64,000 nucleotides of DNA from Sabellastarte sp. h YS-2021. Its lineage: Eukaryota; Annelida; Polychaeta; Sabellida; Sabellidae. The notes below the pieces were generated by a model. It saw only the letters and a program-made list of their open reading frames with translations. It searched no databases and was not told the origin of the DNA. The position numbers were made by a program, and so were the translations under genes. Position 1 is the first letter of the stretch; the number at the start of each line of letters is the position of its first letter. Location of the stretch: contig OZ024936.1 of the NCBI GenBank assembly GCA_964017235.1, forward strand, positions 9,400,496 to 9,464,495, given 5' to 3'. Shown one piece after another: positions 950 to 59,493 of the stretch.

Positions 950-983
950 TTACACGAACAAAATTTTGGTCGGGGGAAAAGGT

Positions 984-3148: not shown

Positions 3149-3176
3149 TTAAGTGTTTTTTTTTTGAGATACAGAC
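3149..3176. other. Variable poly-T site (k-type form)
   Basis: In k and n monomers and their chimeras the site reads AAGTG followed by 9, 10 or 11 T: ten at 3155, nine near 10372, ten near 22141, eleven near 24762 and 28513, nine near 26284, ten near 59887. Most other monomers have GTGGTTTATTTTTTGAG or GTGGTTTAATTTTTGAG. The site accounts for the 1-2 bp differences among the 378-382 and 360-362 bp length classes. Confidence 0.75.
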
Positions 3177-28697: not shown

Positions 28698-29970
28698 TTG
28701 GGTGTTTGGCGCTGGGTTACAGAGAATCGGCCAAAAGGAATATTTCCCATTGACTTTAGTTGGGGGATTTCCAGATGCATGTATAGCTACCTGTTGTCAC
28801 CGACGACCAAGCCGGCCGAAGCGGAGGACACAGATTTTTTTGCACAGGTGGGGAGGGGGTGGCCCCACGATCTTATACAATACAACAGGGTATGGGTTAA
28901 GTGGTTTATTTTTTGAGATACAGACATAAGCAACATTCCCCATTAATTTTAGTTGGGAGATTTCTGTAGCATGGGTACGTACCTTACACGAACAAAATTT
29001 TGGTCGAGGGAAAAGGTCTGGATTTTTCTCCAGAAATAGCAAGGTCAGGCCGCCACAAACTGATGCAATATAACAGGGTTGGGTGTTTGGCGCTGGGTTA
29101 CAGAGAATGGGCCAAAAGGAATATTTCCCATTGACTTTAGTCGGGGGATTTCCTGATGCATGTATAGCTACCTGCTGTCACCGACGACCAAGCCGGCCGA
29201 AACGGCGGACACAGATTTTTTTGCACAGGTGGGGAGGGGGTGACCCCACGATCTTATACAATACAACAGAGTATGGGTTAAGTGGTTTATTTTTTGAGAT
29301 ACAGACATAAGCAACATTCCCCATTAATTTTAGTTGGGAGATTTCTGTAGCATGGGTACGTACCTTACACGAGCCAAACTTTGGTCGGGGAAAAAGGTCT
29401 GGATTTTTCTCCAGAAATAGCAAGGTCAGGCCGCCACAAACTGATGCAATATAACAGGGTTGGGTGTTTGGTGCTTGCTTACAGAGAATCGGCCAAACGG
29501 AATATTTCCCATTCACTTTAGTTGGGGGATTTCCAGATGCATGTATAGCTACCTGTTGTCACCGACGACCAAGCCGGCCGAAGCGGAGGACACAGATTTT
29601 TTTGCACAGGTGGGGAGGGGGTGACCCCACGATCTTATACAATACAACAGAGTATGGGTTAAGTGGTTTATTTTTTGAGATACAGACATAAGCAACATTC
29701 CCCATTAATTTTAGATGGGAGATTTCTGTAGCATGGGTACGTACCTTACACGAGCCAAACTTTGGTCGGGGAAAAAGGTCTGGATTTTTCTCCAGAAATA
29801 GCAAGGTCAGGCCGCCACAAACTGATGCAATATAACAGGGTTGGGTGTTTAGCGCTGGGTTACAGAGAATCGGCCAAAAGGAATATTTCCCATTGACTTT
29901 AGTTGGGGGATTTCCTGATGCATGTATAGCTACCTGTTGTCACCGACGACCAAGCCGGCCGAAATGGCGG
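28698..29970. repeat. Left flank of the homogeneous HOR array: o-d'-e-(j/p')
   Basis: Starts are 28698 o, 29079 d', 29460 e and 29841 j/p'. Markers are GGTCGAGGGAAAA at the end of o, GAGAATGGGCC in d', and CAGAGTATGG with TTTTAGATGGG in e. The same markers recur on the other side of the HOR array at 60079, 60460 and 63083, so the two flanks are homologous. Confidence 0.8.
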
Positions 29971-30214
29971 ACACAGATTTTTTTGCACAGGTGGGGAGGG
30001 GGTGACCCCACGATCTTTTACAATACAACAGGGTATGGGTTAAGTGGTTTATTTTTTGAGATACAGACATAAGCAACATTCCCCATTAATTTTAGTTGGG
30101 AGATTTCTGTAGCATGGGCTTACACGAGCCAAATTTTGGTTGGGGAAAAAGGTCTGGATTTTTCTCCAGAAATAGCAAGGTCAGGCCGCCACAAACTGAT
30201 GCAATATAACAGGG
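29841..30214. repeat. Boundary monomer with j/k-type head, p'-type body and HOR-type tail (374 bp)
   Basis: The head TTTAGCGCTGGG is j or k type, and CCTGATGCATGT with GAAATGGCGG is p' type. From GATCTTTTAC (near 30012) onward it matches the e* monomer of the 3024-bp unit, including the seven-base deletion GCATGGGCTTACACG and GGTTGGGGAAAA. GATCTTTTAC is otherwise seen only in e*. The HOR array therefore begins inside this monomer, between about 29971 and 30015. Confidence 0.75.
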
Positions 30215-31340
30215 TTGGGTGTTTGGGGCTTGCTTACAGAGAATCGGCCAAACAGAATATTTCCCATTGACTTTAGTTGGGGGATTTCTGATGTCACTGA
30301 CCACGTCATCTAGACATTGTGGTGGACACAGATTTTTTTGCACAGGTGGGGAGGGGGTGACCCCACGATCTTATACAATACAACAGGGTATGGGTTAAGT
30401 GGTTTAATTTTTGAGATACAGACATAAGCAACATTCCCCATTAATTTTAGTTGGGAGATTTCTGTAGCATGGGTACGTACCTTGCACGAGCAAAATTTTG
30501 GTCGGGGAAAAAGGTCTGGATTTTTCTCCAGAAATAGCAAGGTCAGGCCGCCAAAAACTGATGCAATATAACAGGGTTGGGTGTTTGGGGCTTGCTTACA
30601 AAGAATCGGCCAAACGGAATATTTCCCATTGACTTTAGTTTGGGAATTTCCAGATGAATGTATAGCTACCTGATGTCACTGACCAAGTCATCTGGCCATT
30701 GTGGTGGACACAGACTTTTTGGCACAGGTGGGGAGGTGGTGACCCCACGATCTTATACAATACAACAGGGTATGGGTTAAGTGGTTTATTTTTTGAGATA
30801 CAGACATAAGCAACATTCCCCATTAATATTAGTTGGGAGATTTCTGTAGCATGGGTACGTACCTTACACGAGCCAAACTTTGGTCCGGCAAAAAGGTCTG
30901 GATTTTTCTCCAGAAATAGCAAGGTCAGGCCGCCACAAACTGATGCAATATAACAGGGTTGGGTGTTTGGGGCTTGCTTACAGAGAATCGGCCAAACGGA
31001 ATATTTCCCATTGACTTTAGTTTGGGAATTTCCAGATGAATGTATAGCTACCTGATGTCACTGACCAAGTCATCTGGCCATTGTGGTGGACACAGACTTT
31101 TTGGCACAGGTGGGGAGGTGGTGACCCCACGATCTTATACTATACAACAGGGTATGGGTTAAGTGGTTTATTTTTTGAGATACAGACATAAGCAACATTC
31201 CCCATTAATTTTAGTTGGGAGATTTCTGTAGCATGGGTACGTACCTTACACGAGCCAAACTTTGGTCCGACAAAAAGGTCTGGATTTTTCTCCAGAAATA
31301 GCAAGGTCAGGCCGCCACAAACTGATGCAATATAACAGGG
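29971..31340. repeat. HOR copy 0 (partial: e* tail, f, g, h)
   Basis: Starts are the e* tail from about 29971, f at 30215, g at 30577 and h at 30959. h carries TATACTATAC and GGTCCGACAAAA as in the full units. The a, b, c, d and e* head portions are absent because of the boundary chimera. Confidence 0.85.
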
Positions 31341-31721
31341 TTGGGTGTTTGGCGCTGGGTTACAGAGAATCGGCCAAAAGGAATATTTCCCATTGACTTT
31401 AGTTGGGAGATTTCCTGATGCATTTATAGCTACCTGATGTCACCGACGACCAAGCCGGCCGAAACGGCGGACACAGATTTTTTTGCACAGGTGGGGAGGG
31501 GGTGACCCCACGATCTTATACAATGCAACAGGGTATGGGTTAAGTGGTTTAATTTTTGAGATACAGACATAAGCAACATTCCCCATTAATTTTAGTTGGG
31601 AGATTTCTGTAGCATGGGTACGTACCTTACACGAACAAAATTTTGGTCGGGCAAAAAGGTCTGGATTTTTCTCCAGAAATAGCAAGGTCAGGCCACCACA
31701 AACTGATGCAATATAACAGGG
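31341..31721. repeat. HOR monomer a (381 bp)
   Basis: Markers are GGGAGATTTCCTGATGCATTT, CTACCTGATGTCACC, GAAACGGCGG, ACAATGCAAC, TTTAATTTTTGAG, GGTCGGGCAAAA and a CCACCACAAA end. It carries the CpG-rich module. Confidence 0.9.
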
Positions 31722-32102
31722 TTGGGTGTTTGGCGCTGGGTTACAGAGAATCGGCCAAAAGGAACATTTCCCATTGACTTTAGTTGGGGGATTTCCAGAT
31801 GCATGTATAGCTACCTGTTGTCACCGACGACCAAGCCGGCCGAAGTGGAGGACACAGATTGTTTTGCACAGGTGGGGAGGGGGTGGCCCCACGATCTTAT
31901 ACAATACAACAGGGTATGGGTTAAGTGGTTTATTTTTTGAGATACAGACATAAGCAACATTCCCCATTAATTTTAGTTGGGAGATTTCTGTAGCATGGGT
32001 ACGTACCTTACACGAACAAAATTTTGGTCGGGGGAAAAGGTCTGGATTTTTCTCCAGAAATAGCAAGGTCAGGCCGCCACAAACTGATGCAATATAACAG
32101 GG
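31722..32102. repeat. HOR monomer b (381 bp)
   Basis: Markers are GGAACATTTC, CCAGATGCATG, GAAGTGGAGG, TTGTTTTGCAC, GTGGCCCC and CGAACAAAATTTT with GGTCGGGGG. It carries the CpG-rich module. Confidence 0.9.
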
Positions 32103-32483
32103 TTGGGTGTTTGGCGCTGGGTTACAGAGAATTGGCCAAAAGGAATATTTCCCATTGACTTTAGTCGGGGGATTTCCTGATGCATGTATAGCTACCTGCT
32201 GTCACCGACGACCAAGCCGGCCGAAACGGCGGACACAGATTGTTTTGCACAGGTGGGGAGGGGGTGACCCCACGATCTTATACAATACAACAGGGTATGG
32301 GTTAAGTGGTTTATTTTTTGAGATACAGACATAAGCAACATTCCCCATTAATTTTAGTTGGGAGATTTCTGTAGCATGGGTACGTACCTTACACGAGCCA
32401 AACTTTGGTCGGGGGAAAAGGTCTGGATTTTTCTCCAGAAATAGCAAGGTCAGGCCGCCACAAACTGATGCAATATAACAGAG
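32103..32483. repeat. HOR monomer c (381 bp)
   Basis: Markers are GAGAATTGGCC, TTTAGTCGGGGG, CCTGATGCATG, CTGCTG, GAAACGGCGG, TTGTTTTG and CGAGCCAAACTTTGG. The junction to d reads CAGAGTTGGG. In the older blocks an i monomer follows c; in the HOR, d follows directly. Confidence 0.9.
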
Positions 32484-32864
32484 TTGGGTGTTTGGCGGTG
32501 GGTTACAGAGAATCGGCCAAAAGGAATATTTCCCATTGACTTTAGTCGGGGGATTTCCTGATGCATGTATAGCTACCTGCTGTCACCGACGACCAAGCCG
32601 GCCAAAACGGCGGACACAGATTTTTTTGCACAGGTGGGGAGGGGGTGACCCCACGATCTTATACAATACAACAGAGTATGGGTTAAGTGGTTTATTTTTT
32701 GAGATACAGACATAAGCAACATTCCCCATTAATTTTAGTTGGGAGATTTCTGTAGCATGGGTACGTACCTTACACGAGCCAAACTTTGGTCGTGGAAAAA
32801 GGTCTGGATTTTTCTCCAGAAATAGCAAGGTCAGGCCGCCACAAACTGATGCAATATAACAGGG
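32484..32864. repeat. HOR monomer d (381 bp)
   Basis: Markers are GGCGGTGGG, TTTAGTCGGGGG, CTGCTG, GCCAAAACGGCGG, CAGAGTATGG and the HOR-specific GGTCGTGGAAAA at about 32789. It carries the CpG-rich module. Confidence 0.9.
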
Positions 32865-33238
32865 TTGGGTGTTTGGGGCTTGCTTACAGAGAATCGGCCA
32901 AACGGAATATTTCCCATTCACTTTAGTTGGGGGATTTCCAGATGCATGTATAGCTACCTGTTGTCACCGACGACCAAGCCGGCCGAAGCGGAGGACACAG
33001 ATTTTTTTGCACAGGTGGGGAGGGGGTGACCCCACGATCTTTTACAATACAACAGGGTATGGGTTAAGTGGTTTATTTTTTGAGATACAGACATAAGCAA
33101 CATTCCCCATTAATTTTAGTTGGGAGATTTCTGTAGCATGGGCTTACACGAGCCAAATTTTGGTTGGGGAAAAAGGTCTGGATTTTTCTCCAGAAATAGC
33201 AAGGTCAGGCCGCCACAAACTGATGCAATATAACAGGG
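32865..33238. repeat. HOR monomer e* (374 bp, e head with palindrome-deleted tail)
   Basis: The head is type e (GGGGCTTGC, CCAAACGG, CCCATTCACTTT, CCAGATGCATG, GAAGCGGAGG). The tail, from GATCTTTTAC, matches the boundary monomer at 29841 and the p' family, with the seven-base core of the palindrome missing (GCATGGGCTTACACG) and GGTTGGGGAAAA. Full-length e monomers (381 bp, palindrome intact) are at 2188, 5996, 13594, 16261 and 59318. e* is therefore a chimera fixed in the HOR. Confidence 0.85.
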
Positions 33239-33600
33239 TTGGGTGTTTGGGGCTTGCTTACAGAGAATCGGCCAAACAGAATATTTCCCATTGACTTTAG
33301 TTGGGGGATTTCTGATGTCACTGACCACGTCATCTAGACATTGTGGTGGACACAGATTTTTTTGCACAGGTGGGGAGGGGGTGACCCCACGATCTTATAC
33401 AATACAACAGGGTATGGGTTAAGTGGTTTAATTTTTGAGATACAGACATAAGCAACATTCCCCATTAATTTTAGTTGGGAGATTTCTGTAGCATGGGTAC
33501 GTACCTTGCACGAGCAAAATTTTGGTCGGGGAAAAAGGTCTGGATTTTTCTCCAGAAATAGCAAGGTCAGGCCGCCAAAAACTGATGCAATATAACAGGG
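33239..33600. repeat. HOR monomer f (362 bp, 20-bp deletion)
   Basis: After GGGGGATTTC the sequence goes directly to TGATGTCACTGACC. The 20 bases present at this place in g (CAGATG...CTACC) are missing. It carries the CpG-poor module CACTGACC...TCATCTAGACATTGTGG and ends CCAAAAACTG. A CCTTGCACGAGC variant marks the palindrome region. Confidence 0.9.
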
Positions 33601-33982
33601 TTGGGTGTTTGGGGCTTGCTTACAAAGAATCGGCCAAACGGAATATTTCCCATTGACTTTAGTTTGGGAATTTCCAGATGAATGTATAGCTACCTGATGT
33701 CACTGACCAAGTCATCTGGCCATTGTGGTGGACACAGACTTTTTGGCACAGGTGGGGAGGTGGTGACCCCACGATCTTATACAATACAACAGGGTATGGG
33801 TTAAGTGGTTTATTTTTTGAGATACAGACATAAGCAACATTCCCCATTAATATTAGTTGGGAGATTTCTGTAGCATGGGTACGTACCTTACACGAGCCAA
33901 ACTTTGGTCCGGCAAAAAGGTCTGGATTTTTCTCCAGAAATAGCAAGGTCAGGCCGCCACAAACTGATGCAATATAACAGGG
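33601..33982. repeat. HOR monomer g (382 bp)
   Basis: Markers are GCTTGCTTACAAAGAATC, TTTAGTTTGGGAATTTCC, CCAGATGAATG, CTGATGTCACTGACCAAG, TCATCTGGCCATTGTGG, CAGACTTTTTGGCAC, GGAGGTGGTG, TTAATATTAG and GGTCCGGCAAAA. It carries the CpG-poor module. Confidence 0.9.
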
Positions 33983-34364
33983 TTGGGTGTTTGGGGCTTG
34001 CTTACAGAGAATCGGCCAAACGGAATATTTCCCATTGACTTTAGTTTGGGAATTTCCAGATGAATGTATAGCTACCTGATGTCACTGACCAAGTCATCTG
34101 GCCATTGTGGTGGACACAGACTTTTTGGCACAGGTGGGGAGGTGGTGACCCCACGATCTTATACTATACAACAGGGTATGGGTTAAGTGGTTTATTTTTT
34201 GAGATACAGACATAAGCAACATTCCCCATTAATTTTAGTTGGGAGATTTCTGTAGCATGGGTACGTACCTTACACGAGCCAAACTTTGGTCCGACAAAAA
34301 GGTCTGGATTTTTCTCCAGAAATAGCAAGGTCAGGCCGCCACAAACTGATGCAATATAACAGGG
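33983..34364. repeat. HOR monomer h (382 bp)
   Basis: Very close to g but with TTACAGAGAATC, TTAATTTTAG, TATACTATAC and GGTCCGACAAAA. g and h look like a recent adjacent duplication of one type. h is the monomer missing from HOR copy 2. Confidence 0.9.
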
Positions 34365-37006
34365 TTGGGTGTTTGGCGCTGGGTTACAGAGAATCGGCCA
34401 AAAGGAATATTTCCCATTGACTTTAGTTGGGAGATTTCCTGATGCATTTATAGCTACCTGATGTCACCGACGACCAAGCCGGCCGAAACGGCGGACACAG
34501 ATTTTTTTGCACAGGTGGGGAGGGGGTGACCCCACGATCTTATACAATGCAACAGGGTATGGGTTAAGTGGTTTAATTTTTGAGATACAGACATAAGCAA
34601 CATTCCCCATTAATTTTAGTTGGGAGATTTCTGTAGCATGGGTACGTACCTTACACGAACAAAATTTTGGTCGGGCAAAAAGGTCTGGATTTTTCTCCAG
34701 AAATAGCAAGGTCAGGCCACCACAAACTGATGCAATATAACAGGGTTGGGTGTTTGGCGCTGGGTTACAGAGAATCGGCCAAAAGGAACATTTCCCATTG
34801 ACTTTAGTTGGGGGATTTCCAGATGCATGTATAGCTACCTGTTGTCACCGACGACCAAGCCGGCCGAAGTGGAGGACACAGATTGTTTTGCACAGGTGGG
34901 GAGGGGGTGGCCCCACGATCTTATACAATACAACAGGGTATGGGTTAAGTGGTTTATTTTTTGAGATACAGACATAAGCAACATTCCCCATTAATTTTAG
35001 TTGGGAGATTTCTGTAGCATGGGTACGTACCTTACACGAACAAAATTTTGGTCGGGGGAAAAGGTCTGGATTTTTCTCCAGAAATAGCAAGGTCAGGCCG
35101 CCACAAACTGATGCAATATAACAGGGTTGGGTGTTTGGCGCTGGGTTACAGAGAATTGGCCAAAAGGAATATTTCCCATTGACTTTAGTCGGGGGATTTC
35201 CTGATGCATGTATAGCTACCTGCTGTCACCGACGACCAAGCCGGCCGAAACGGCGGACACAGATTGTTTTGCACAGGTGGGGAGGGGGTGACCCCACGAT
35301 CTTATACAATACAACAGGGTATGGGTTAAGTGGTTTATTTTTTGAGATACAGACATAAGCAACATTCCCCATTAATTTTAGTTGGGAGATTTCTGTAGCA
35401 TGGGTACGTACCTTACACGAGCCAAACTTTGGTCGGGGGAAAAGGTCTGGATTTTTCTCCAGAAATAGCAAGGTCAGGCCGCCACAAACTGATGCAATAT
35501 AACAGAGTTGGGTGTTTGGCGGTGGGTTACAGAGAATCGGCCAAAAGGAATATTTCCCATTGACTTTAGTCGGGGGATTTCCTGATGCATGTATAGCTAC
35601 CTGCTGTCACCGACGACCAAGCCGGCCAAAACGGCGGACACAGATTTTTTTGCACAGGTGGGGAGGGGGTGACCCCACGATCTTATACAATACAACAGAG
35701 TATGGGTTAAGTGGTTTATTTTTTGAGATACAGACATAAGCAACATTCCCCATTAATTTTAGTTGGGAGATTTCTGTAGCATGGGTACGTACCTTACACG
35801 AGCCAAACTTTGGTCGTGGAAAAAGGTCTGGATTTTTCTCCAGAAATAGCAAGGTCAGGCCGCCACAAACTGATGCAATATAACAGGGTTGGGTGTTTGG
35901 GGCTTGCTTACAGAGAATCGGCCAAACGGAATATTTCCCATTCACTTTAGTTGGGGGATTTCCAGATGCATGTATAGCTACCTGTTGTCACCGACGACCA
36001 AGCCGGCCGAAGCGGAGGACACAGATTTTTTTGCACAGGTGGGGAGGGGGTGACCCCACGATCTTTTACAATACAACAGGGTATGGGTTAAGTGGTTTAT
36101 TTTTTGAGATACAGACATAAGCAACATTCCCCATTAATTTTAGTTGGGAGATTTCTGTAGCATGGGCTTACACGAGCCAAATTTTGGTTGGGGAAAAAGG
36201 TCTGGATTTTTCTCCAGAAATAGCAAGGTCAGGCCGCCACAAACTGATGCAATATAACAGGGTTGGGTGTTTGGGGCTTGCTTACAGAGAATCGGCCAAA
36301 CAGAATATTTCCCATTGACTTTAGTTGGGGGATTTCTGATGTCACTGACCACGTCATCTAGACATTGTGGTGGACACAGATTTTTTTGCACAGGTGGGGA
36401 GGGGGTGACCCCACGATCTTATACAATACAACAGGGTATGGGTTAAGTGGTTTAATTTTTGAGATACAGACATAAGCAACATTCCCCATTAATTTTAGTT
36501 GGGAGATTTCTGTAGCATGGGTACGTACCTTGCACGAGCAAAATTTTGGTCGGGGAAAAAGGTCTGGATTTTTCTCCAGAAATAGCAAGGTCAGGCCGCC
36601 AAAAACTGATGCAATATAACAGGGTTGGGTGTTTGGGGCTTGCTTACAAAGAATCGGCCAAACGGAATATTTCCCATTGACTTTAGTTTGGGAATTTCCA
36701 GATGAATGTATAGCTACCTGATGTCACTGACCAAGTCATCTGGCCATTGTGGTGGACACAGACTTTTTGGCACAGGTGGGGAGGTGGTGACCCCACGATC
36801 TTATACAATACAACAGGGTATGGGTTAAGTGGTTTATTTTTTGAGATACAGACATAAGCAACATTCCCCATTAATATTAGTTGGGAGATTTCTGTAGCAT
36901 GGGTACGTACCTTACACGAGCCAAACTTTGGTCCGGCAAAAAGGTCTGGATTTTTCTCCAGAAATAGCAAGGTCAGGCCGCCACAAACTGATGCAATATA
37001 ACAGGG
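34365..37006. repeat. HOR copy 2 (2642 bp, 7-mer lacking h)
   Basis: Starts are a 34365, b 34746, c 35127, d 35508, e* 35889, f 36263 and g 36625; the next a is at 37007. The last monomer has the g markers ACAAAGAATC, TTAATATTAG and GGTCCGGCAAAA and is followed directly by a. Exactly one 382-bp monomer is absent. Confidence 0.95.
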
Positions 37007-40000
37007 TTGGGTGTTTGGCGCTGGGTTACAGAGAATCGGCCAAAAGGAATATTTCCCATTGACTTTAGTTGGGAGATTTCCTGATGCATTTATAGCTACC
37101 TGATGTCACCGACGACCAAGCCGGCCGAAACGGCGGACACAGATTTTTTTGCACAGGTGGGGAGGGGGTGACCCCACGATCTTATACAATGCAACAGGGT
37201 ATGGGTTAAGTGGTTTAATTTTTGAGATACAGACATAAGCAACATTCCCCATTAATTTTAGTTGGGAGATTTCTGTAGCATGGGTACGTACCTTACACGA
37301 ACAAAATTTTGGTCGGGCAAAAAGGTCTGGATTTTTCTCCAGAAATAGCAAGGTCAGGCCACCACAAACTGATGCAATATAACAGGGTTGGGTGTTTGGC
37401 GCTGGGTTACAGAGAATCGGCCAAAAGGAACATTTCCCATTGACTTTAGTTGGGGGATTTCCAGATGCATGTATAGCTACCTGTTGTCACCGACGACCAA
37501 GCCGGCCGAAGTGGAGGACACAGATTGTTTTGCACAGGTGGGGAGGGGGTGGCCCCACGATCTTATACAATACAACAGGGTATGGGTTAAGTGGTTTATT
37601 TTTTGAGATACAGACATAAGCAACATTCCCCATTAATTTTAGTTGGGAGATTTCTGTAGCATGGGTACGTACCTTACACGAACAAAATTTTGGTCGGGGG
37701 AAAAGGTCTGGATTTTTCTCCAGAAATAGCAAGGTCAGGCCGCCACAAACTGATGCAATATAACAGGGTTGGGTGTTTGGCGCTGGGTTACAGAGAATTG
37801 GCCAAAAGGAATATTTCCCATTGACTTTAGTCGGGGGATTTCCTGATGCATGTATAGCTACCTGCTGTCACCGACGACCAAGCCGGCCGAAACGGCGGAC
37901 ACAGATTGTTTTGCACAGGTGGGGAGGGGGTGACCCCACGATCTTATACAATACAACAGGGTATGGGTTAAGTGGTTTATTTTTTGAGATACAGACATAA
38001 GCAACATTCCCCATTAATTTTAGTTGGGAGATTTCTGTAGCATGGGTACGTACCTTACACGAGCCAAACTTTGGTCGGGGGAAAAGGTCTGGATTTTTCT
38101 CCAGAAATAGCAAGGTCAGGCCGCCACAAACTGATGCAATATAACAGAGTTGGGTGTTTGGCGGTGGGTTACAGAGAATCGGCCAAAAGGAATATTTCCC
38201 ATTGACTTTAGTCGGGGGATTTCCTGATGCATGTATAGCTACCTGCTGTCACCGACGACCAAGCCGGCCAAAACGGCGGACACAGATTTTTTTGCACAGG
38301 TGGGGAGGGGGTGACCCCACGATCTTATACAATACAACAGAGTATGGGTTAAGTGGTTTATTTTTTGAGATACAGACATAAGCAACATTCCCCATTAATT
38401 TTAGTTGGGAGATTTCTGTAGCATGGGTACGTACCTTACACGAGCCAAACTTTGGTCGTGGAAAAAGGTCTGGATTTTTCTCCAGAAATAGCAAGGTCAG
38501 GCCGCCACAAACTGATGCAATATAACAGGGTTGGGTGTTTGGGGCTTGCTTACAGAGAATCGGCCAAACGGAATATTTCCCATTCACTTTAGTTGGGGGA
38601 TTTCCAGATGCATGTATAGCTACCTGTTGTCACCGACGACCAAGCCGGCCGAAGCGGAGGACACAGATTTTTTTGCACAGGTGGGGAGGGGGTGACCCCA
38701 CGATCTTTTACAATACAACAGGGTATGGGTTAAGTGGTTTATTTTTTGAGATACAGACATAAGCAACATTCCCCATTAATTTTAGTTGGGAGATTTCTGT
38801 AGCATGGGCTTACACGAGCCAAATTTTGGTTGGGGAAAAAGGTCTGGATTTTTCTCCAGAAATAGCAAGGTCAGGCCGCCACAAACTGATGCAATATAAC
38901 AGGGTTGGGTGTTTGGGGCTTGCTTACAGAGAATCGGCCAAACAGAATATTTCCCATTGACTTTAGTTGGGGGATTTCTGATGTCACTGACCACGTCATC
39001 TAGACATTGTGGTGGACACAGATTTTTTTGCACAGGTGGGGAGGGGGTGACCCCACGATCTTATACAATACAACAGGGTATGGGTTAAGTGGTTTAATTT
39101 TTGAGATACAGACATAAGCAACATTCCCCATTAATTTTAGTTGGGAGATTTCTGTAGCATGGGTACGTACCTTGCACGAGCAAAATTTTGGTCGGGGAAA
39201 AAGGTCTGGATTTTTCTCCAGAAATAGCAAGGTCAGGCCGCCAAAAACTGATGCAATATAACAGGGTTGGGTGTTTGGGGCTTGCTTACAAAGAATCGGC
39301 CAAACGGAATATTTCCCATTGACTTTAGTTTGGGAATTTCCAGATGAATGTATAGCTACCTGATGTCACTGACCAAGTCATCTGGCCATTGTGGTGGACA
39401 CAGACTTTTTGGCACAGGTGGGGAGGTGGTGACCCCACGATCTTATACAATACAACAGGGTATGGGTTAAGTGGTTTATTTTTTGAGATACAGACATAAG
39501 CAACATTCCCCATTAATATTAGTTGGGAGATTTCTGTAGCATGGGTACGTACCTTACACGAGCCAAACTTTGGTCCGGCAAAAAGGTCTGGATTTTTCTC
39601 CAGAAATAGCAAGGTCAGGCCGCCACAAACTGATGCAATATAACAGGGTTGGGTGTTTGGGGCTTGCTTACAGAGAATCGGCCAAACGGAATATTTCCCA
39701 TTGACTTTAGTTTGGGAATTTCCAGATGAATGTATAGCTACCTGATGTCACTGACCAAGTCATCTGGCCATTGTGGTGGACACAGACTTTTTGGCACAGG
39801 TGGGGAGGTGGTGACCCCACGATCTTATACTATACAACAGGGTATGGGTTAAGTGGTTTATTTTTTGAGATACAGACATAAGCAACATTCCCCATTAATT
39901 TTAGTTGGGAGATTTCTGTAGCATGGGTACGTACCTTACACGAGCCAAACTTTGGTCCGACAAAAAGGTCTGGATTTTTCTCCAGAAATAGCAAGGTCAG

Positions 40001-40030
40001 GCCGCCACAAACTGATGCAATATAACAGGG
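37007..40030. repeat. HOR copy 3 (3024 bp, full 8-mer)
   Basis: Starts are a 37007, b 37388, c 37769, d 38150, e* 38531, f 38905, g 39267 and h 39649. No private change was noticed. Confidence 0.95.
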
Positions 40031-43000: not shown

Positions 43001-43054
43001 TTTCTCCAGAAATAGCAAGGTCAGGCCGCCACAAACTGATGCAATATAACAGGG
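40031..43054. repeat. HOR copy 4 (3024 bp, full 8-mer)
   Basis: Starts are a 40031, b 40412, c 40793, d 41174, e* 41555, f 41929, g 42291 and h 42673. Private changes: a GG-to-CT dinucleotide at 40537-40538 in b, and G-to-A at 41299 in d (CAAAACAGCGG). C-to-G at 41507 in d (making CTCGAG) is shared with copy 5 only. Confidence 0.95.
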
Positions 43055-46000: not shown

Positions 46001-46078
46001 TGGTCCGACAAAAAGGTCTGGATTTTTCTCCAGAAATAGCAAGGTCAGGCCGCCACAAACTGATGCAATATAACAGGG
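43055..46078. repeat. HOR copy 5 (3024 bp, full 8-mer)
   Basis: Starts are a 43055, b 43436, c 43817, d 44198, e* 44579, f 44953, g 45315 and h 45697. It shares the CTCGAG change (44531) with copy 4 and a G-to-A in b (43501, GTTGAGGGATTT) with copy 6. It is thus intermediate between its two neighbours. Confidence 0.95.
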
Positions 46079-48721: not shown

Positions 48722-51700
48722 TTGGGTGTTTGGCGCTGGGTTACAGAGAATCGGCCAAAAGGAATATTTCCCATTGACTTTAGTTGGGAGATTTCCTGAT
48801 GCATTTATAGCTACCTGATGTCACCGACGACCAAGCCGGCCGAAACGGCGGACACAGATTTTTTTGCACAGGTGGGGAGGGGGTGACCCCACGATCTTAT
48901 ACAATGCAACAGGGTATGGGTTAAGTGGTTTAATTTTTGAGATACAGACATAAGCAACATTCCCCATTAATTTTAGTTGGGAGATTTCTGTAGCATGGGT
49001 ACGTACCTTACACGAACAAAATTTTGGTCGGGCAAAAAGGTCTGGATTTTTCTCCAGAAATAGCAAGGTCAGGCCACCACAAACTGATGCAATATAACAG
49101 GGTTGGGTGTTTGGCGCTGGGTTACAGAGAATCGGCCAAAAGGAACATTTCCCATTGACTTTAGTTGGGGGATTTCCAGATGCATGTATAGCTACCTGTT
49201 GTCACCGACGACCAAGCCGGCCGAAGTGGAGGACACAGATTGTTTTGCACAGGTGGGGAGGGGGTGGCCCCACGATCTTATACAATACAACAGGGTATGG
49301 GTTAAGTGGTTTATTTTTTGAGATACAGACATAAGCAACATTCCCCATTAATTTTAGTTGGGAGATTTCTGTAGCATGGGTACGTACCTTACACGAACAA
49401 AATTTTGGTCGGGGGAAAAGGTCTGGATTTTTCTCCAGAAATAGCAAGGTCAGGCCGCCACAAACTGATGCAATATAACAGGGTTGGGTGTTTGGCGCTG
49501 GGTTACAGAGAATTGGCCAAAAGGAATATTTCCCATTGACTTTAGTCGGGGGATTTCCTGATGCATGTATAGCTACCTGCTGTCACCGACGACCAAGCCG
49601 GCCGAAACGGCGGACACAGATTGTTTTGCACAGGTGGGGAGGGGGTGACCCCACGATCTTATACAATACAACAGGGTATGGGTTAAGTGGTTTATTTTTT
49701 GAGATACAGACATAAGCAACATTCCCCATTAATTTTAGTTGGGAGATTTCTGTAGCATGGGTACGTACCTTACACGAGCCAAACTTTGGTCGGGGGAAAA
49801 GGTCTGGATTTTTCTCCAGAAATAGCAAGGTCAGGCCGCCACAAACTGATGCAATATAACAGAGTTGGGTGTTTGGCGGTGGGTTACAGAGAATCGGCCA
49901 AAAGGAATATTTCCCATTGACTTTAGTCGGGGGATTTCCTGATGCATGTATAGCTACCTGCTGTCACCGACGACCAAGCCGGCCAAAACGGCGGACACAG
50001 ATTTTTTTGCACAGGTGGGGAGGGGGTGACCCCACGATCTTATACAATACAACAGAGTATGGGTTAAGTGGTTTATTTTTTGAGATACAGACATAAGCAA
50101 CATTCCCCATTAATTTTAGTTGGGAGATTTCTGTAGCATGGGTACGTACCTTACACGAGCCAAACTTTGGTCGTGGAAAAAGGTCTGGATTTTTCTCCAG
50201 AAATAGCAAGGTCAGGCCGCCACAAACTGATGCAATATAACAGGGTTGGGTGTTTGGGGCTTGCTTACAGAGAATCGGCCAAACGGAATATTTCCCATTC
50301 ACTTTAGTTGGGGGATTTCCAGATGCATGTATAGCTACCTGTTGTCACCGACGACCAAGCCGGCCGAAGCGGAGGACACAGATTTTTTTGCACAGGTGGG
50401 GAGGGGGTGACCCCACGATCTTTTACAATACAACAGGGTATGGGTTAAGTGGTTTATTTTTTGAGATACAGACATAAGCAACATTCCCCATTAATTTTAG
50501 TTGGGAGATTTCTGTAGCATGGGCTTACACGAGCCAAATTTTGGTTGGGGAAAAAGGTCTGGATTTTTCTCCAGAAATAGCAAGGTCAGGCCGCCACAAA
50601 CTGATGCAATATAACAGGGTTGGGTGTTTGGGGCTTGCTTACAGAGAATCGGCCAAACAGAATATTTCCCATTGACTTTAGTTGGGGGATTTCTGATGTC
50701 ACTGACCACGTCATCTAGACATTGTGGTGGACACAGATTTTTTTGCACAGGTGGGGAGGGGGTGACCCCACGATCTTATACAATACAACAGGGTATGGGT
50801 TAAGTGGTTTAATTTTTGAGATACAGACATAAGCAACATTCCCCATTAATTTTAGTTGGGAGATTTCTGTAGCATGGGTACGTACCTTGCACGAGCAAAA
50901 TTTTGGTCGGGGAAAAAGGTCTGGATTTTTCTCCAGAAATAGCAAGGTCAGGCCGCCAAAAACTGATGCAATATAACAGGGTTGGGTGTTTGGGGCTTGC
51001 TTACAAAGAATCGGCCAAACGGAATATTTCCCATTGACTTTAGTTTGGGAATTTCCAGATGAATGTATAGCTACCTGATGTCACTGACCAAGTCATCTGG
51101 CCATTGTGGTGGACACAGACTTTTTGGCACAGGTGGGGAGGTGGTGATCCCACGATCTTATACAATACAACAGGGTATGGGTTAAGTGGTTTATTTTTTG
51201 AGATACAGACATAAGCAACATTCCCCATTAATATTAGTTGGGAGATTTCTGTAGCATGGGTACGTACCTTACACGAGCCAAACTTTGGTCCGGCAAAAAG
51301 GTCTGGATTTTTCTCCAGAAATAGCAAGGTCAGGCCGCCACAAACTGATGCAATATAACAGGGTTGGGTGTTTGGGGCTTGCTTACAGAGAATCGGCCAA
51401 ACGGAATATTTCCCATTGACTTTAGTTTGGGAATTTCCAGATGAATGTATAGCTACCTGATGTCACTGACCAAGTCATCTGGCCATTGTGGTGGACACAG
51501 ACTTTTTGGCACAGGTGGGGAGGTGGTGACCCCACGATCTTATACTATACAACAGGGTATGGGTTAAGTGGTTTATTTTTTGAGATACAGACATAAGCAA
51601 CATTCCCCATTAATTTTAGTTGGGAGATTTCTGTAGCATGGGTACGTACCTTACACGAGCCAAACTTTGGTCCGACAAAAAGGTCTGGATTTTTCTCCAG

Positions 51701-51745
51701 AAATAGCAAGGTCAGGCCGCCACAAACTGATGCAATATAACAGGG
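48722..51745. repeat. HOR copy 7 (3024 bp, full 8-mer)
   Basis: Starts are a 48722, b 49103, c 49484, d 49865, e* 50246, f 50620, g 50982 and h 51364. A private C-to-T change lies at 51148 in the G-rich dyad of g (GGTGATCCCAC). Confidence 0.95.
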
Positions 51746-54700
51746 TTGGGTGTTTGGCGCTGGGTTACAGAGAATCGGCCAAAAGGAATATTTCCCATTG
51801 ACTTTAGTTGGGAGATTTCCTGATGCATTTATAGCTACCTGATGTCACCGACGACCAAGCCGGCCGAAACGGCGGACACAGATTTTTTTGCACAGGTGGG
51901 GAGGGGGTGACCCCACGATCTTATACAATGCAACAGGGTATGGGTTAAGTGGTTTAATTTTTGAGATACAGACATAAGCAACATTCCCCATTAATTTTAG
52001 TTGGGAGATTTCTGTAGCATGGGTACGTACCTTACACGAACAAAATTTTGGTCGGGCAAAAAGGTCTGGATTTTTCTCCAGAAATAGCAAGGTCAGGCCA
52101 CCACAAACTGATGCAATATAACAGGGTTGGGTGTTTGGCGCTGGGTTACAGAGAATCGGCCAAAAGGAACATTTCCCATTGACTTTAGTTGGGGGATTTC
52201 CAGATGCATGTATAGCTACCTGTTGTCACCGACGACCAAGCCGGCCGAAGTGGAGGACACAGATTGTTTTGCACAGGTGGGGAGGGGGTGGCCCCACGAT
52301 CTTATACAATACAACAGGGTATGGGTTAAGTGGTTTATTTTTTGAGATACAGACATAAGCAACATTCCCCATTAATTTTAGTTGGGAGATTTCTGTAGCA
52401 TGGGTACGTACCTTACACGAACAAAATTTTGGTCGGGGGAAAAGGTCTGGATTTTTCTCCAGAAATAGCAAGGTCAGGCCGCCACAAACTGATGCAATAT
52501 AACAGGGTTGGGTGTTTGGCGCTGGGTTACAGAGAATTGGCCAAAAGGAATATTTCCCATTGACTTTAGTCGGGGGATTTCCTGATGCATGTATAGCTAC
52601 CTGCTGTCACCGACGACCAAGCCGGCCGAAACGGCGGACACAGATTGTTTTGCACAGGTGGGGAGGGGGTGACCCCACGATCTTATACAATACAACAGGG
52701 TATGGGTTAAGTGGTTTATTTTTTGAGATACAGACATAAGCAACATTCCCCATTAATTTTAGTTGGGAGATTTCTGTAGCATGGGTACGTACCTTACACG
52801 AGCCAAACTTTGGTCGGGGGAAAAGGTCTGGATTTTTCTCCAGAAATAGCAAGGTCAGGCCGCCACAAACTGATGCAATATAACAGAGTTGGGTGTTTGG
52901 CGGTGGGTTACAGAGAATCGGCCAAAAGGAATATTTCCCATTGACTTTAGTCGGGGGATTTCCTGATGCATGTATAGCTACCTGCTGTCACCGACGACCA
53001 AGCCGGCCAAAACGGCGGACACAGATTTTTTTGCACAGGTGGGGAGGGGGTGACCCCACGATCTTATACAATACAACAGAGTATGGGTTAAGTGGTTTAT
53101 TTTTTGAGATACAGACATAAGCAACATTCCCCATTAATTTTAGTTGGGAGATTTCTGTAGCATGGGTACGTACCTTACACGAGCCAAACTTTGGTCGTGG
53201 AAAAAGGTCTGGATTTTTCTCCAGAAATAGCAAGGTCAGGCCGCCACAAACTGATGCAATATAACAGGGTTGGGTGTTTGGGGCTTGCTTACAGAGAATC
53301 GGCCAAACGGAATATTTCCCATTCACTTTAGTTGGGGGATTTCCAGATGCATGTATAGCTACCTGTTGTCACCGACGACCAAGCCGGCCGAAGCGGAGGA
53401 CACAGATTTTTTTGCACAGGTGGGGAGGGGGTGACCCCACGATCTTTTACAATACAACAGGGTATGGGTTAAGTGGTTTATTTTTTGAGATACAGACATA
53501 AGCAACATTCCCCATTAATTTTAGTTGGGAGATTTCTGTAGCATGGGCTTACACGAGCCAAATTTTGGTTGGGGAAAAAGGTCTGGATTTTTCTCCAGAA
53601 ATAGCAAGGTCAGGCCGCCACAAACTGATGCAATATAACAGGGTTGGGTGTTTGGGGCTTGCTTACAGAGAATCGGCCAAACAGAATATTTCCCATTGAC
53701 TTTAGTTGGGGGATTTCTGATGTCACTGACCACGTCATCTAGACATTGTGGTGGACACAGATTTTTTTGCACAGGTGGGGAGGGGGTGACCCCACGATCT
53801 TATACAATACAACAGGGTATGGGTTAAGTGGTTTAATTTTTGAGATACAGACATAAGCAACATTCCCCATTAATTTTAGTTGGGAGATTTCTGTAGCATG
53901 GGTACGTACCTTGCACGAGCAAAATTTTGGTCGGGGAAAAAGGTCTGGATTTTTCTCCAGAAATAGCAAGGTCAGGCCGCCAAAAACTGATGCAATATAA
54001 CAGGGTTGGGTGTTTGGGGCTTGCTTACAAAGAATCGGCCAAACGGAATATTTCCCATTGACTTTAGTTTGGGAATTTCCAGATGAATGTATAGCTACCT
54101 GATGTCACTGACCAAGTCATCTGGCCATTGTGGTGGACACAGACTTTTTGGCACAGGTGGGGAGGTGGTGACCCCACGATCTTATACAATACAACAGGGT
54201 ATGGGTTAAGTGGTTTATTTTTTGAGATACAGACATAAGCAACATTCCCCATTAATATTAGTTGGGAGATTTCTGTAGCATGGGTACGTACCTTACACGA
54301 GCCAAACTTTGGTCCGGCAAAAAGGTCTGGATTTTTCTCCAGAAATAGCAAGGTCAGGCCGCCACAAACTGATGCAATATAACAGGGTTGGGTGTTTGGG
54401 GCTTGCTTACAGAGAATCGGCCAAACGGAATATTTCCCATTGACTTTAGTTTGGGAATTTCCAGATGAATGTATAGCTACCTGATGTCACTGACCAAGTC
54501 ATCTGGCCATTGTGGTGGACACAGACTTTTTGGCACAGGTGGGGAGGTGGTGACCCCACGATCTTATACTATACAACAGGGTATGGGTTAAGTGGTTTAT
54601 TTTTTGAGATACAGACATAAGCAACATTCCCCATTAATTTTAGTTGGGAGATTTCTGTAGCATGGGTACGTACCTTACACGAGCCAAACTTTGGTCCGAC

Positions 54701-54769
54701 AAAAAGGTCTGGATTTTTCTCCAGAAATAGCAAGGTCAGGCCGCCACAAACTGATGCAATATAACAGGG
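51746..54769. repeat. HOR copy 8 (3024 bp, full 8-mer)
   Basis: Starts are a 51746, b 52127, c 52508, d 52889, e* 53270, f 53644, g 54006 and h 54388. No private change was noticed. Confidence 0.95.
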
Positions 54770-57700
54770 TTGGGTGTTTGGCGCTGGGTTACAGAGAATC
54801 GGCCAAAAGGAATATTTCCCATTGACTTTAGTTGGGAGATTTCCTGATGCATTTATAGCTACCTGATGTCACCGACGACCAAGCCGGCCGAAACGGCGGA
54901 CACAGATTTTTTTGCACAGGTGGGGAGGGGGTGACCCCACGATCTTATACAATGCAACAGGGTATGGGTTAAGTGGTTTAATTTTTGAGATACAGACATA
55001 AGCAACATTCCCCATTAATTTTAGTTGGGAGATTTCTGTAGCATGGGTACGTACCTTACACGAACAAAATTTTGGTCAGGCAAAAAGGTCTGGATTTTTC
55101 TCCAGAAATAGCAAGGTCAGGCCACCACAAACTGATGCAATATAACAGGGTTGGGTGTTTGGCGCTGGGTTACAGAGAATCGGCCAAAAGGAACATTTCC
55201 CATTGACTTTAGTTGGGGGATTTCCAGATGCATGTATAGCTACCTGTTGTCACCGACGACCAAGCCGGCCGAAGTGGAGGACACAGATTGTTTTGCACAG
55301 GTGGGGAGGGGGTGGCCCCACGATCTTATACAATACAACAGGGTATGGGTTAAGTGGTTTATTTTTTGAGATACAGACATAAGCAACATTCCCCATTAAT
55401 TTTAGTTGGGAGATTTCTGTAGCATGGGTACGTACCTTACACGAACAAAATTTTGGTCGGGGGAAAAGGTCTGGATTTTTCTCCAGAAATAGCAAGGTCA
55501 GGCCGCCACAAACTGATGCAATATAACAGGGTTGGGTGTTTGGCGCTGGGTTACAGAGAATTGGCCAAAAGGAATATTTCCCATTGACTTTAGTCGGGGG
55601 ATTTCCTGATGCATGTATAGCTACCTGCTGTCACCGACGACCAAGCCGGCCGAAACGGCGGACACAGATTGTTTTGCACAGGTGGGGAGGGGGTGACCCC
55701 ACGATCTTATACAATACAACAGGGTATGGGTTAAGTGGTTTATTTTTTGAGATACAGACATAAGCAACATTCCCCATTAATTTTAGTTGGGAGATTTCTG
55801 TAGCATGGGTACGTACCTTACACGAGCCAAACTTTGGTCGGGGGAAAAGGTCTGGATTTTTCTCCAGAAATAGCAAGGTCAGGCCGCCACAAACTGATGC
55901 AATATAACAGAGTTGGGTGTTTGGCGGTGGGTTACAGAGAATCGGCCAAAAGGAATATTTCCCATTGACTTTAGTCGGGGGATTTCCTGATGCATGTATA
56001 GCTACCTGCTGTCACTGACGACCAAGCCGGCCAAAACGGCGGACACAGATTTTTTTGCACAGGTGGGGAGGGGGTGACCCCACGATCTTATACAATACAA
56101 CAGAGTATGGGTTAAGTGGTTTATTTTTTGAGATACAGACATAAGCAACATTCCCCATTAATTTTAGTTGGGAGATTTCTGTAGCATGGGTACGTACCTT
56201 ACACGAGCCAAACTTTGGTCGTGGAAAAAGGTCTGGATTTTTCTCCAGAAATAGCAAGGTCAGGCCGCCACAAACTGATGCAATATAACAGGGTTGGGTG
56301 TTTGGGGCTTGCTTACAGAGAATCGGCCAAACGGAATATTTCCCATTCACTTTAGTTGGGGGATTTCCAGATGCATGTATAGCTACCTGTTGTCACCGAC
56401 GACCAAGCCGGCCGAAGCGGAGGACACAGATTTTTTTGCACAGGTGGGGAGGGGGTGACCCCACGATCTTTTACAATACAACAGGGTATGGGTTAAGTGG
56501 TTTATTTTTTGAGATACAGACATAAGCAACATTCCCCATTAATTTTAGTTGGGAGATTTCTGTAGCATGGGCTTACACGAGCCAAATTTTGGTTGGGGAA
56601 AAAGGTCTGGATTTTTCTCCAGAAATAGCAAGGTCAGGCCGCCACAAACTGATGCAATATAACAGGGTTGGGTGTTTGGGGCTTGCTTACAGAGAATCGG
56701 CCAAACAGAATATTTCCCATTGACTTTAGTTGGGGGATTTCTGATGTCACTGACCACGTCATCTAGACATTGTGGTGGACACAGATTTTTTTGCACAGGT
56801 GGGGAGGGGGTGACCCCACGATCTTATACAATACAACAGGGTATGGGTTAAGTGGTTTAATTTTTGAGATACAGACATAAGCAACATTCCCCATTAATTT
56901 TAGTTGGGAGATTTCTGTAGCATGGGTACGTACCTTGCACGAGCAAAATTTTGGTCGGGGAAAAAGGTCTGGATTTTTCTCCAGAAATAGCAAGGTCAGG
57001 CCGCCAAAAACTGATGCAATATAACAGGGTTGGGTGTTTGGGGCTTGCTTACAAAGAATCGGCCAAACGGAATATTTCCCATTGACTTTAGTTTGGGAAT
57101 TTCCAGATGAATGTATAGCTACCTGATGTCACTGACCAAGTCATCTGGCCATTGTGGTGGACACAGACTTTTTGGCACAGGTGGGGAGGTGGTGACCCCA
57201 CGATCTTATACAATACAACAGGGTATGGGTTAAGTGGTTTATTTTTTGAGATACAGACATAAGCAACATTCCCCATTAATATTAGTTGGGAGATTTCTGT
57301 AGCATGGGTACGTACCTTACACGAGCCAAACTTTGGTCCGGCAAAAAGGTCTGGATTTTTCTCCAGAAATAGCAAGGTCAGGCCGCCACAAACTGATGCA
57401 ATATAACAGGGTTGGGTGTTTGGGGCTTGCTTACAGAGAATCGGCCAAACGGAATATTTCCCATTGACTTTAGTTTGGGAATTTCCAGATGAATGTATAG
57501 CTACCTGATGTCACTGACCAAGTCATCTGGCCATTGTGGTGGACACAGACTTTTTGGCACAGGTGGGGAGGTGGTGACCCCACGATCTTATACTATACAA
57601 CAGGGTATGGGTTAACTGGTTTATTTTTTGAGATACAGACATAAGCAACATTCCCCATTAATTTTAGTTGGGAGATTTCTGTAGCATGGGTACGTACCTT

Positions 57701-57793
57701 ACACGAGCCAAACTTTGGTCCGACAAAAAGGTCTGGATTTTTCTCCAGAAATAGCAAGGTCAGGCCGCCACAAACTGATGCAATATAACAGGG
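54770..57793. repeat. HOR copy 9 (3024 bp, full 8-mer)
   Basis: Starts are a 54770, b 55151, c 55532, d 55913, e* 56294, f 56668, g 57030 and h 57412. Private changes: G-to-A at 55078 in a, C-to-T at 56016 in d (loss of a CpG), and G-to-C at 57616 in h. It has the most private changes seen among the full units and lies next to the array edge. Confidence 0.95.
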
Positions 57794-59493
57794 TTGGGTG
57801 TTTGGCGCTGGGTTACAGAGAATCGGCCAAAAGGAATATTTCCCATTGACTTTAGTTGGGAGATTTCCTGATGCATTTATAGCTACCTGATGTCACCGAC
57901 GACCAAGCCGGCCGAAACGGCGGACACAGATTTTTTTGCACAGGTGGGGAGGGGGTGACCCCACGATCTTATACAATGCAACAGGGTATGGGTTAAGTGG
58001 TTTAATTTTTGAGATACAGACATAAGCAACATTCCCCATTAATTTTAGTTGGGAGATTTCTGTAGCATGGGTACGTACCTTACACGAACAAAATTTTGGT
58101 CGGGCAAAAAGGTCTGGATTTTTCTCCAGAAATAGCAAGGTCAGGCCACCACAAACTGATGCAATATAACAGGGTTGGGTGTTTGGCGCTGGGTTACAGA
58201 GAATCGGCCAAAAGGAACATTTCCCATTGACTTTAGTTGGGGGATTTCCAGATGCATGTATAGCTACCTGTTGTCACCGACGACCAAGCCGGCCGAAGTG
58301 GAGGACACAGATTGTTTTGCACAGGTGGGGAGGGGGTGGCCCCACGATCTTATACAATACAACAGGGTATGGGTTAAGTGGTTTATTTTTTGAGATACAG
58401 ACATAAGCAACATTCCCCATTAATTTTAGTTGGGAGATTTCTGTAGCATGGGTACGTACCTTACACGAACAAAATTTTGGTCGGGGGAAAAGGTCTGGAT
58501 TTTTCTCCAGAAATAGCAAGGTCAGGCCGCCACAAACTGATGCAATATAACAGGGTTGGGTGTTTGGCGCTGGGTTACAGAGAATTGGCCAAAAGGAATA
58601 TTTCCCATTGACTTTAGTCGGGGGATTTCCTGATGCATGTATAGCTACCTGCTGTCACCGACGACCAAGCCGGCCGAAACGGCGGACACAGATTGTTTTG
58701 CACAGGTGGGGAGGGGGTGACCCCACGATCTTATACAATACAACAGGGTATGGGTTAAGTGGTTTATTTTTTGAGATACAGACATAAGCAACATTCCCCA
58801 TTAATTTTAGTTGGGAGATTTCTGTAGCATGGGTACGTACCTTACACGAGCCAAACTTTGGTCGGGGGAAAAGGTCTGGATTTTTCTCCAGAAATAGCAA
58901 GGTCAGGCCGCCACAAACTGATGCAATATAACAGAGTTGGGTGTTTGGCGGTGGGTTACAGAGAATCGGCCAAAAGGAATATTTCCCATTGACTTTAGTC
59001 GGGGGATTTCCTGATGCATGTATAGCTACCTGCTGTCACCGACGACCAAGCCGGCCAAAACGGCGGACACAGATTTTTTTGCACAGGTGGGGAGGGGGTG
59101 ACCCCACGATCTTATACAATACAACAGAGTATGGGTTAAGTGGTTTATTTTTTGAGATACAGACATAAGCAACATTCCCCATTAATTTTAGTTGGGAGAT
59201 TTCTGTAGCATGGGTACGTACCTTACACGAGCCAAACTTTGGTCGTGGAAAAAGGTCTGGATTTTTCTCCAGAAATAGCAAGGTCAGGCCGCCACAAACT
59301 GATGCAATATAACAGGGTTGGGTGTTTGGGGCTTGCTTACAGAGAATCGGCCAAACGGAATATTTCCCATTCACTTTAGTTGGGGGATTTCCAGATGCAT
59401 GTATAGCTACCTGTTGTCACCGACGACCAAGCCGGCCGAAGCGGAGGACACAGATTTTTTTGCACAGGTGGGGAGGGGGTGACCCCACGATCT
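57794..59493. repeat. HOR copy 10 (partial: a, b, c, d, e head)
   Basis: Starts are a 57794, b 58175, c 58556, d 58937 and e 59318. d still has the HOR marker GGTCGTGGAAAA. The e monomer then reads GATCTTATAC, keeps the palindrome and ends GGTCGGGGAAAA, which is the full-length old e type. The HOR therefore ends between about 59244 and 59494. Confidence 0.85.

What the first reader, a model, noticed from the sequence alone, without database searches (positions are those of the whole stretch)
29971..59493. Homogeneous 8-monomer higher-order repeat inside a diverged satellite
A 3024-bp unit of eight distinguishable monomers repeats nine times between partial copies, with only scattered substitutions. 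Both sides are occupied by older mosaic arrangements of the same monomer types. Seen directly: spacings of 3024 bp and HOR-specific markers. Established knowledge: this layout (young homogeneous HOR core, diverged flanks) is known from centromeric satellites such as human alpha satellite. Inference: this could be the youngest, possibly functional, core of a centromere or another heterochromatic block.
Basis: partly seen in the sequence, partly recalled or inferred. Interest (0 to 1): 0.75.

Follow-up and report, generated by a model that had tools for sequence, protein, structure and literature searches.

The report
Young eight-monomer repeat block in satellite
This is a stretch of repetitive chromosome DNA (a 381-base satellite) in which blocks of 8 and of about 30 repeats were copied side by side recently; such patterns are common in plants and animals and do not by themselves show that this is a centromere.

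Summary
The 64 kb are one head-to-tail satellite (381-bp monomer, 169 monomers). From 29969 to 59494 an octamer HOR (3024 bp) occurs ten times: eight full units and two 7-monomer units, each explained by one monomer-register deletion. Units differ by 0.07% on average; monomers inside a unit differ by 3-10%. The claim that both sides are older is wrong for the left side: 579-11755 and 11985-22020 are a tandem duplication of a 30-monomer block (11,406-bp shift; copy 2 lacks 3 monomers) with 2 mismatches in 10,036 bp, at least as young as the core. Next to the core lies a 10-monomer pair (98.6%). So the window shows several block duplications, not one young core in old flanks. The likely mechanism is repeated out-of-register exchange or copying. 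No kinetochore mark was found (CENP-B box, dyads, 10-bp rhythm), but these tests are weak. CpG sites are decayed, as in methylated DNA. HORs also occur off centromeres (rye pSc200: subtelomeric, octamers of ~3 kb). Host and locus unknown. A known kind; low to moderate interest.

The parts
1..64000 (+). one head-to-tail satellite array, monomer 381 bp (169 monomers of 354-385 bp decomposed between 26 and the last anchor)
   Evidence: TRF one row 30-64000, period 381, 169.1 copies; 170 anchors; no Rfam match at gathering score
29969..59494 (+). homogeneous octamer HOR core, monomer order S-R-T-A-B-C-U-F, ten units
29963..32986 (+). HOR unit 1 (3024 bp; unit positions 2, 3 and 6 carry the left-edge differences)
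32987..36010 (+). HOR unit 2 (3024 bp, equals consensus)
36011..38652 (+). HOR unit 3, seven monomers (2642 bp); T/A hybrid left by a 382-bp deletion, breakpoint at unit position 926-1008
   Evidence: 0 mismatches to unit 2 with this deletion
38653..41676 (+). HOR unit 4 (3024 bp, 4 differences from consensus)
41677..44700 (+). HOR unit 5 (3024 bp, 2 differences, one shared with U4, one with U6)
44701..47343 (+). HOR unit 6, seven monomers (2643 bp); U/F hybrid left by a 381-bp deletion, breakpoint at unit position 2597-2617
   Evidence: 1 mismatch to unit 2 with this deletion
47344..50367 (+). HOR unit 7 (3024 bp, equals consensus)
50368..53391 (+). HOR unit 8 (3024 bp, 1 difference)
53392..56415 (+). 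HOR unit 9 (3024 bp, 2 differences)
56416..59439 (+). HOR unit 10 (3024 bp, 1 difference)
579..11755 (+). left flank, copy 1 of a tandem duplication of a 30-monomer block (11,406-bp shift); includes 1141 bp, 3 monomers, absent from copy 2 (deletion starts between 2779 and 2834)
   Evidence: 2 mismatches after base 578; 7835-bp part
11985..22020 (+). left flank, copy 2 of the duplication, lacking 3 monomers
   Evidence: 3921-11755 vs 14186-22020 has 1 mismatch in 7835 bp
22437..26200 (+). ten-monomer block, copy 1
   Evidence: 98.56% to copy 2 over 3761 aligned bp with small gaps; cluster string
26201..29962 (+). ten-monomer block, copy 2, ends at the core
59905..62403 (+). right flank segment matching 28524-31022, which spans the left junction of the core
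   Evidence: 2499 bp, 20 mismatches, 99.20%

Best explanation
This is a piece of a long eukaryotic satellite array kept moving by repeated out-of-register homologous exchange or copying between sister chromatids or neighbouring repeats. Blocks of whole monomers (8, 10 and 30) are duplicated in tandem, and now and then one or three monomers are lost in register. The octamer block has been amplified furthest here (ten units), and the 30-mer block was duplicated at least as recently. Shown: block sizes, copy numbers, near-identity, monomer-register deletions, variants shared by neighbouring units. Inferred: the exchange mechanism, the eukaryotic host, and that the array sits in CpG-methylated chromatin (CpG decay). 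Not shown: any kinetochore role. This mechanism does not exclude either location named among the rivals.
For: Core units are 99.80-100% identical from unit position 7 onward while monomers inside unit 2 are 90.1-96.9% identical. U3 and U6 are reproduced with 0 and 1 mismatches by a single deletion of 382 or 381 bp, one monomer length. Neighbours U4/U5 share 2855 C>G and U5/U6 share 1825 G>A, as expected if adjacent units were copied from each other. The 30-mer pair shows the same signature: a 1141-bp (3-monomer) deletion and 2 mismatches in 10,036 bp. At 6 of the 9 variant sites in the core the variant base is seen in none of 91 flank monomers, so most look like fresh mutations rather than conversion from the flanks seen here. 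The stretch across the core's left edge recurs in the right flank at 99.2%. CpG sites carry transitions at 18 of 24 sites against 35 of 151 other C/G sites (counts, Fisher p 1.4e-6); outside the most variable part 11 of 14 against 25 of 124.
Against: Exchange cannot be told from replication-based amplification (break-induced replication, rolling circles) with one haplotype. Human work argues that simple unequal crossover is not enough for some new HORs (PMC11062924 passages). At 3 of 9 variant sites the variant base also occurs in flank monomers (1825: 1, 1687: 5, 2625: 14 of 91), so conversion is possible there. Some variants or block counts could be sequencing or assembly errors; no reads were available. 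CHG sites show no excess of transitions (7 of 36 against 28 of 115 CHH, p 0.65), so the methylation signature is CpG only.
Confidence: 0.88

Rival explanations
1. The octamer core is the functional centromere: the youngest HOR layer, carrying CENH3/CENP-A, inside older pericentromeric satellite.
For: A long satellite array with a homogeneous HOR, as at primate centromeres, where the most identical repeats lie centrally and become more divergent outwards (PMC11062924 passages). The monomer is made of two ~190-bp halves, 69% identical, each about one nucleosome repeat long (recalled).
Against: The left flank contains an equally recent 30-mer duplication, so identity does not single out this core. 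No CENP-B box with at most one mismatch, though 185 of 200 shuffled monomers also lack one. No dyad or WW-periodicity excess. Genome share and position could not be checked because no genome is held. HORs also occur outside centromeres (PMC4857426 passages).
Confidence: 0.3
2. The array is a non-centromeric heterochromatic block (subtelomeric, knob-like or sex-chromosomal) whose HORs arise by the same exchange process with no kinetochore role.
For: Rye pSc200 is a subtelomeric satellite with 379-bp monomers, two clades (4% average difference within, 11% between) and multimers up to a ~3-kb octamer lying centrally in the arrays (PMC4857426 passages): the same architecture as here (381 bp, two monomer types, 3024-bp octamer).
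Against: The sequence is not pSc200: its 58-base probe and both PCR primers score like shuffled controls. No telomere-type repeat in the window (six motifs).
Confidence: 0.5
3. Assembly artefact: repeat count or the near-identical 11.4-kb and 3-kb copies come from graph loops or duplicate haplotype joins.
For: Four of ten core units equal the consensus over the bases they have from position 7 onward and the 30-mer pair has 2 mismatches in 10,036 bp; such stretches are hard to assemble.
Against: The copies carry private variants, two different 7-mer units and a 3-monomer deletion, which a simple loop would not create.
Confidence: 0.08

Closest known systems
Human alpha-satellite HOR arrays (e.g. 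D8Z2)
   Same: Tandem units of several distinguishable monomers; [quoted passage not shown]
   Different: Monomer 381 bp, not 171; no CENP-B box; monomers within a unit 90-97% identical here, against typically ~70% quoted for alpha HORs (PMC8122249 passages); no simple layering in the 64 kb seen; centromere role untested.
Rye subtelomeric satellite pSc200
   Same: 379-bp monomer, two monomer clades, HOR multimers up to an octamer of ~3 kb lying centrally in arrays (PMC4857426 passages).
   Different: No sequence similarity of the window to the published pSc200 probe or primers; species of the window unknown.
HOR satellites in plants and animals in general
   Same: Clear HOR structure in 76 of 171 species with Sanger data (PMC4053949 passages).
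   Different: HORs of three or more monomers were rarely identified there because of read length; here an octamer, a decamer and a 30-mer sit in one 64-kb stretch.

Membership tests
Higher-order repeat satellite | units of several distinguishable monomers repeat in tandem | tested here: met
   ten units S-R-T-A-B-C-U-F, two of them lacking one monomer
Higher-order repeat satellite | identity between units clearly above identity between monomers within a unit | tested here: met
   99.80-100% from unit position 7 onward against 90.1-96.9% in unit 2
Layered primate-type centromere array | most identical repeats in one central layer, increasingly divergent outwards | tested here: not met
   left flank holds a tandem duplication with 2 mismatches in 10,036 bp, not above the core mean difference; only 64 kb seen, so the larger layout is unknown
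Functional centromere satellite | CENH3/CENP-A enrichment, local methylation dip | not testable with these tools
   no ChIP or methylation reads available
Human alpha satellite | 171-bp monomer with CENP-B box in part of the monomers | tested here: not met
   monomer 381 bp; TTCGNNNNANNCGGG with up to 1 mismatch: 0 matches (motif recalled)
Rye pSc200 | sequence of the pSc200 monomer | tested here: not met
   58-base probe score 17 (60 shuffles mean 18.1, perfect 116); primers 14 and 14 (shuffles 15.0, 14.7), searched in window 29901-36100; probe and primers cover at most 99 of 379 bases
Rye pSc200 | ~380-bp monomer with octamer HOR of ~3 kb | tested here: met
   381 bp and 3024 bp here; 379 bp and ~3 kb in PMC4857426 passages

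The most novel reading that the evidence does not exclude
In this unidentified species several HOR registers (8-mer, 10-mer, 30-mer) of one satellite are being amplified in the same period at neighbouring places of one array. The array would then grow by saltatory multi-site block copying rather than from a single central generator, and would be a test case, possibly outside primates, for how centromere-like arrays renew themselves.
Probability: 0.25. Interest if true: 0.45.

Novelty: new member of a known kind. Interest (0 to 1): 0.27.

Why it matters
It is a clear, base-level record of how a satellite array renews itself: monomer-register deletions, block duplications of three sizes, and private variants shared by neighbours. 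It cautions against reading 'homogeneous HOR core' as 'centromere', because an equally young duplication sits in what was taken for the old flank. If the array proved centromeric it would help to ask whether kinetochore position follows the most homogeneous or the most mixed repeats.

Tried and rejected
Centromere-type sequence marks. CENP-B motif: 0 matches with up to one mismatch; in the 23 monomer types the best match has 2 mismatches in 9 types and 3 in 14, while 126 of 200 shuffled monomers reach 2 or fewer, so its absence says little. Dyads: stem 5, 7 against 6.8 expected; stem 6, 4 against 1.7 (p 0.145); stem 7, 0 against 0.5. WW 10-bp periodicity p 0.85. Six telomere-type motifs: 0 each. 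All. Single-strand DNA folding of one monomer: z -0.01. Rhythm of variable positions at half-monomer spacing: correlation 0.10-0.15 at lags 180-193, not special.

Host identification. Exact patterns in viral contigs: 0 and 0 matches. In prokaryote genome contigs one 20-mer pattern gave 2 matches; similarity to the window reaches only 22 and 32 bp there, judged chance. Plasmids and phages with one octamer unit, distant mode: no match. Literature searches aimed at the repeat: 0 papers, 1 paper (UHRF1, unrelated, listing only), 421 papers of which 25 were listed and only some looked into; (six sequence strings), 2 papers, both on Oxytricha. Searches were for pSc200 and for HOR context (25, 15 and 12 listed). 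None led to a named match, but the library holds open-licence papers only and no supplements were read. Oxytricha 380-bp satellite: no sequence in the passages seen (PMC6765146); not tested. Rye pSc200, the best lead, was rejected by sequence. Six other cereal repeat probes also scored like shuffles (lowest p 0.10, pAs1); the name pSc119.2 on one of them is my reading of a table row whose label was cut off.

Method failures. A self-BLAST returned only the trivial self-match and was replaced by a diagonal scan (output cut in the middle). Gap placement for U3 and for the 30-mer pair is not trusted; replace them. A claim that the left duplication is younger than the core was dropped: 2 mismatches against 7.0 expected gives p 0.03 on non-independent pairs, so only 'at least as young' is kept.

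Full report
What is there. The window is one tandem satellite. TRF gives a single row from 30 to 64000, period 381, 169.1 copies, and an anchor scan splits it into 169 monomers of 354-385 bp. There is no Rfam match at gathering score. All 25 ORFs of 100 aa or more lie on the minus strand and recur with the repeat (21 of 112 aa, 2 of 115, 2 of 150); I did not search them. No genome is held for the window. GC is 44-46%. With no match in plasmids or phages or viral contigs, a eukaryotic origin is inferred; the species is unknown.

The octamer core. Clustering monomers at 2% distance gives 23 types, and the core reads S-R-T-A-B-C-U-F ten times, with T missing once and F missing once. Eight units are 3024 bp, U3 is 2642 and U6 is 2643 bp. 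U3 equals unit 2 with one 382-bp deletion and no other change, U6 with one 381-bp deletion and one change. From the monomer lengths the two ends of each deletion fall at the same monomer phase to within a base, which leaves a T/A and a U/F hybrid monomer. From unit position 7 onward U1, U2, U3 and U7 equal the consensus over the bases they have. The ten units carry 11 differing bases at 9 sites, of which 2855 is shared by U4 and U5 and 1825 by U5 and U6. Positions 2, 3 and 6 of U1 also differ and belong to the left edge. Mean pairwise difference is 0.070%, maximum 0.199%. Monomers within unit 2 are 90.1-96.9% identical. Lag-8 monomer identity is 0.988 against a maximum of 0.950 in 1000 order shuffles, so the HOR is far beyond chance.

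The left flank is not simply old. A scan of diagonals found 3921-11755 against 14186-22020 with 1 mismatch in 7835 bp. Read with a 1141-bp deletion, bases 1-11755 and 11407-22020 align with 11 mismatches; 9 of these lie in the first 578 bp, which leaves 2 (2197 and 6989) in 10,036 bp. This is a tandem duplication of a 30-monomer block (11,406-bp shift) whose second copy has lost three monomers in register. Monomer identity in the left part peaks at lag 27 (0.983), with 0.962 at lag 30 and 0.946-0.960 at the other lags from 1 to 35. At the core's mean difference 7.0 mismatches would be expected; 2 gives p 0.03, but the pairs are not independent, so the safe statement is 'at least as young as the core'. 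Next to the core lies a ten-monomer pair (22437-26200 and 26201-29962; 98.56%; 99.51% over 2247 bp). To the right, 59905-62403 matches 28524-31022, the stretch that spans the core's left edge, at 99.2%; that arrangement probably existed in more than one copy before the octamer expanded (inference).

How it most likely works. These marks fit out-of-register homologous exchange or copying in whole monomers: duplications of 8, 10 and 30 monomers, losses of 1, 1 and 3 monomers, hybrids at the breakpoints, private variants shared between neighbours. At 6 of the 9 variant sites in the core the variant base is found in none of the 91 flank monomers; at three it is found in 1 (1825), 5 (1687) and 14 (2625) of 91. 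Most are thus probably fresh mutations, and conversion is possible for the rest.

Monomer anatomy. The monomer is an old dimer: its halves align at 69% identity (125 of 180 aligned pairs). The score of 75 is the best of 38 offsets; 500 base shuffles at that offset had mean -48 and maximum -9. Variation is concentrated at 326-381 and 1-6 (mean 0.21 against 0.04 elsewhere). Two monomer types (126 and 43 of 169) differ at 12 diagnostic columns, 10 of them within 363-380. Around that cassette type I carries 4.79 CpG on average and type II 0.28, with more TpG/CpA in type II (9.33 against 3.39). Across the monomer, CpG sites show transitions at 18 of 24 sites against 35 of 151 other C/G sites, and outside the most variable part at 11 of 14 against 25 of 124; CHG sites do not differ from CHH (7 of 36, 28 of 115, p 0.65). 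This points to CpG methylation in the germ line (inference); the lack of a CHG signal gives no support for a plant host.

Centromere or not. The window gives no sequence mark for a kinetochore: no CENP-B box with up to one mismatch (expected for most shuffled monomers too), no clear dyad excess, no WW rhythm. None of these is decisive; passages of PMC8122249 state that the CENP-B box is not needed for CENP-A chromatin. HORs occur in many taxa (76 of 171 species in PMC4053949 passages), and the closest architectural match that I found is subtelomeric: rye pSc200, 379-bp monomers, octamers of ~3 kb (PMC4857426 passages). The sequence is not pSc200 as far as its probe and primers can tell. In human chromosome 8 CENP-A is enriched over a hypomethylated stretch of diverse HORs (PMC8099727 passages), so a homogeneous block would not by itself be the predicted site.

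Papers. For PMC4857426, PMC4440213, PMC9036760, PMC9017042, PMC4783937, PMC8099727, PMC8122249, PMC11062924, PMC4053949 and PMC6765146 I saw passages returned by term searches; other papers only as search listings.

Verdict. A real HOR, correctly spotted, with the unit count and the age of the left flank corrected. It is a new member of a known kind; the centromere reading stays open.

Noticed in passing
579-11755 and 11985-22020: Tandem duplication of a 30-monomer (11.4-kb) block with 2 mismatches in 10,036 bp and a 3-monomer deletion in copy 2; it may continue to the left of the window as a second, long-period HOR.
   Followed up: yes
monomer positions 363-380, e.g. monomers at 31084 (type I) and 30702 (type II): Two monomer types differ mainly in an 18-column cassette; type II looks like a CpG-decayed form of type I (0.28 against 4.79 CpG). 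It recalls the short box that separates A and B types of alpha satellite (recalled), but no protein site is known here.
   Followed up: partly
40537-40538 (U4): Two adjacent substitutions in one unit, with bases seen in no other monomer of the window at these columns; a double-base mutation or a sequencing error.
   Followed up: partly
59905-62403 and 28524-31022: The right flank carries a 99.2% copy of the stretch that spans the left edge of the core.
   Followed up: partly
whole window, minus strand, e.g. 1906-2244, 2287-2625: 25 open frames of 112-150 aa on the minus strand that recur with the repeat; probably a by-product of the repeat, not searched.
   Followed up: no
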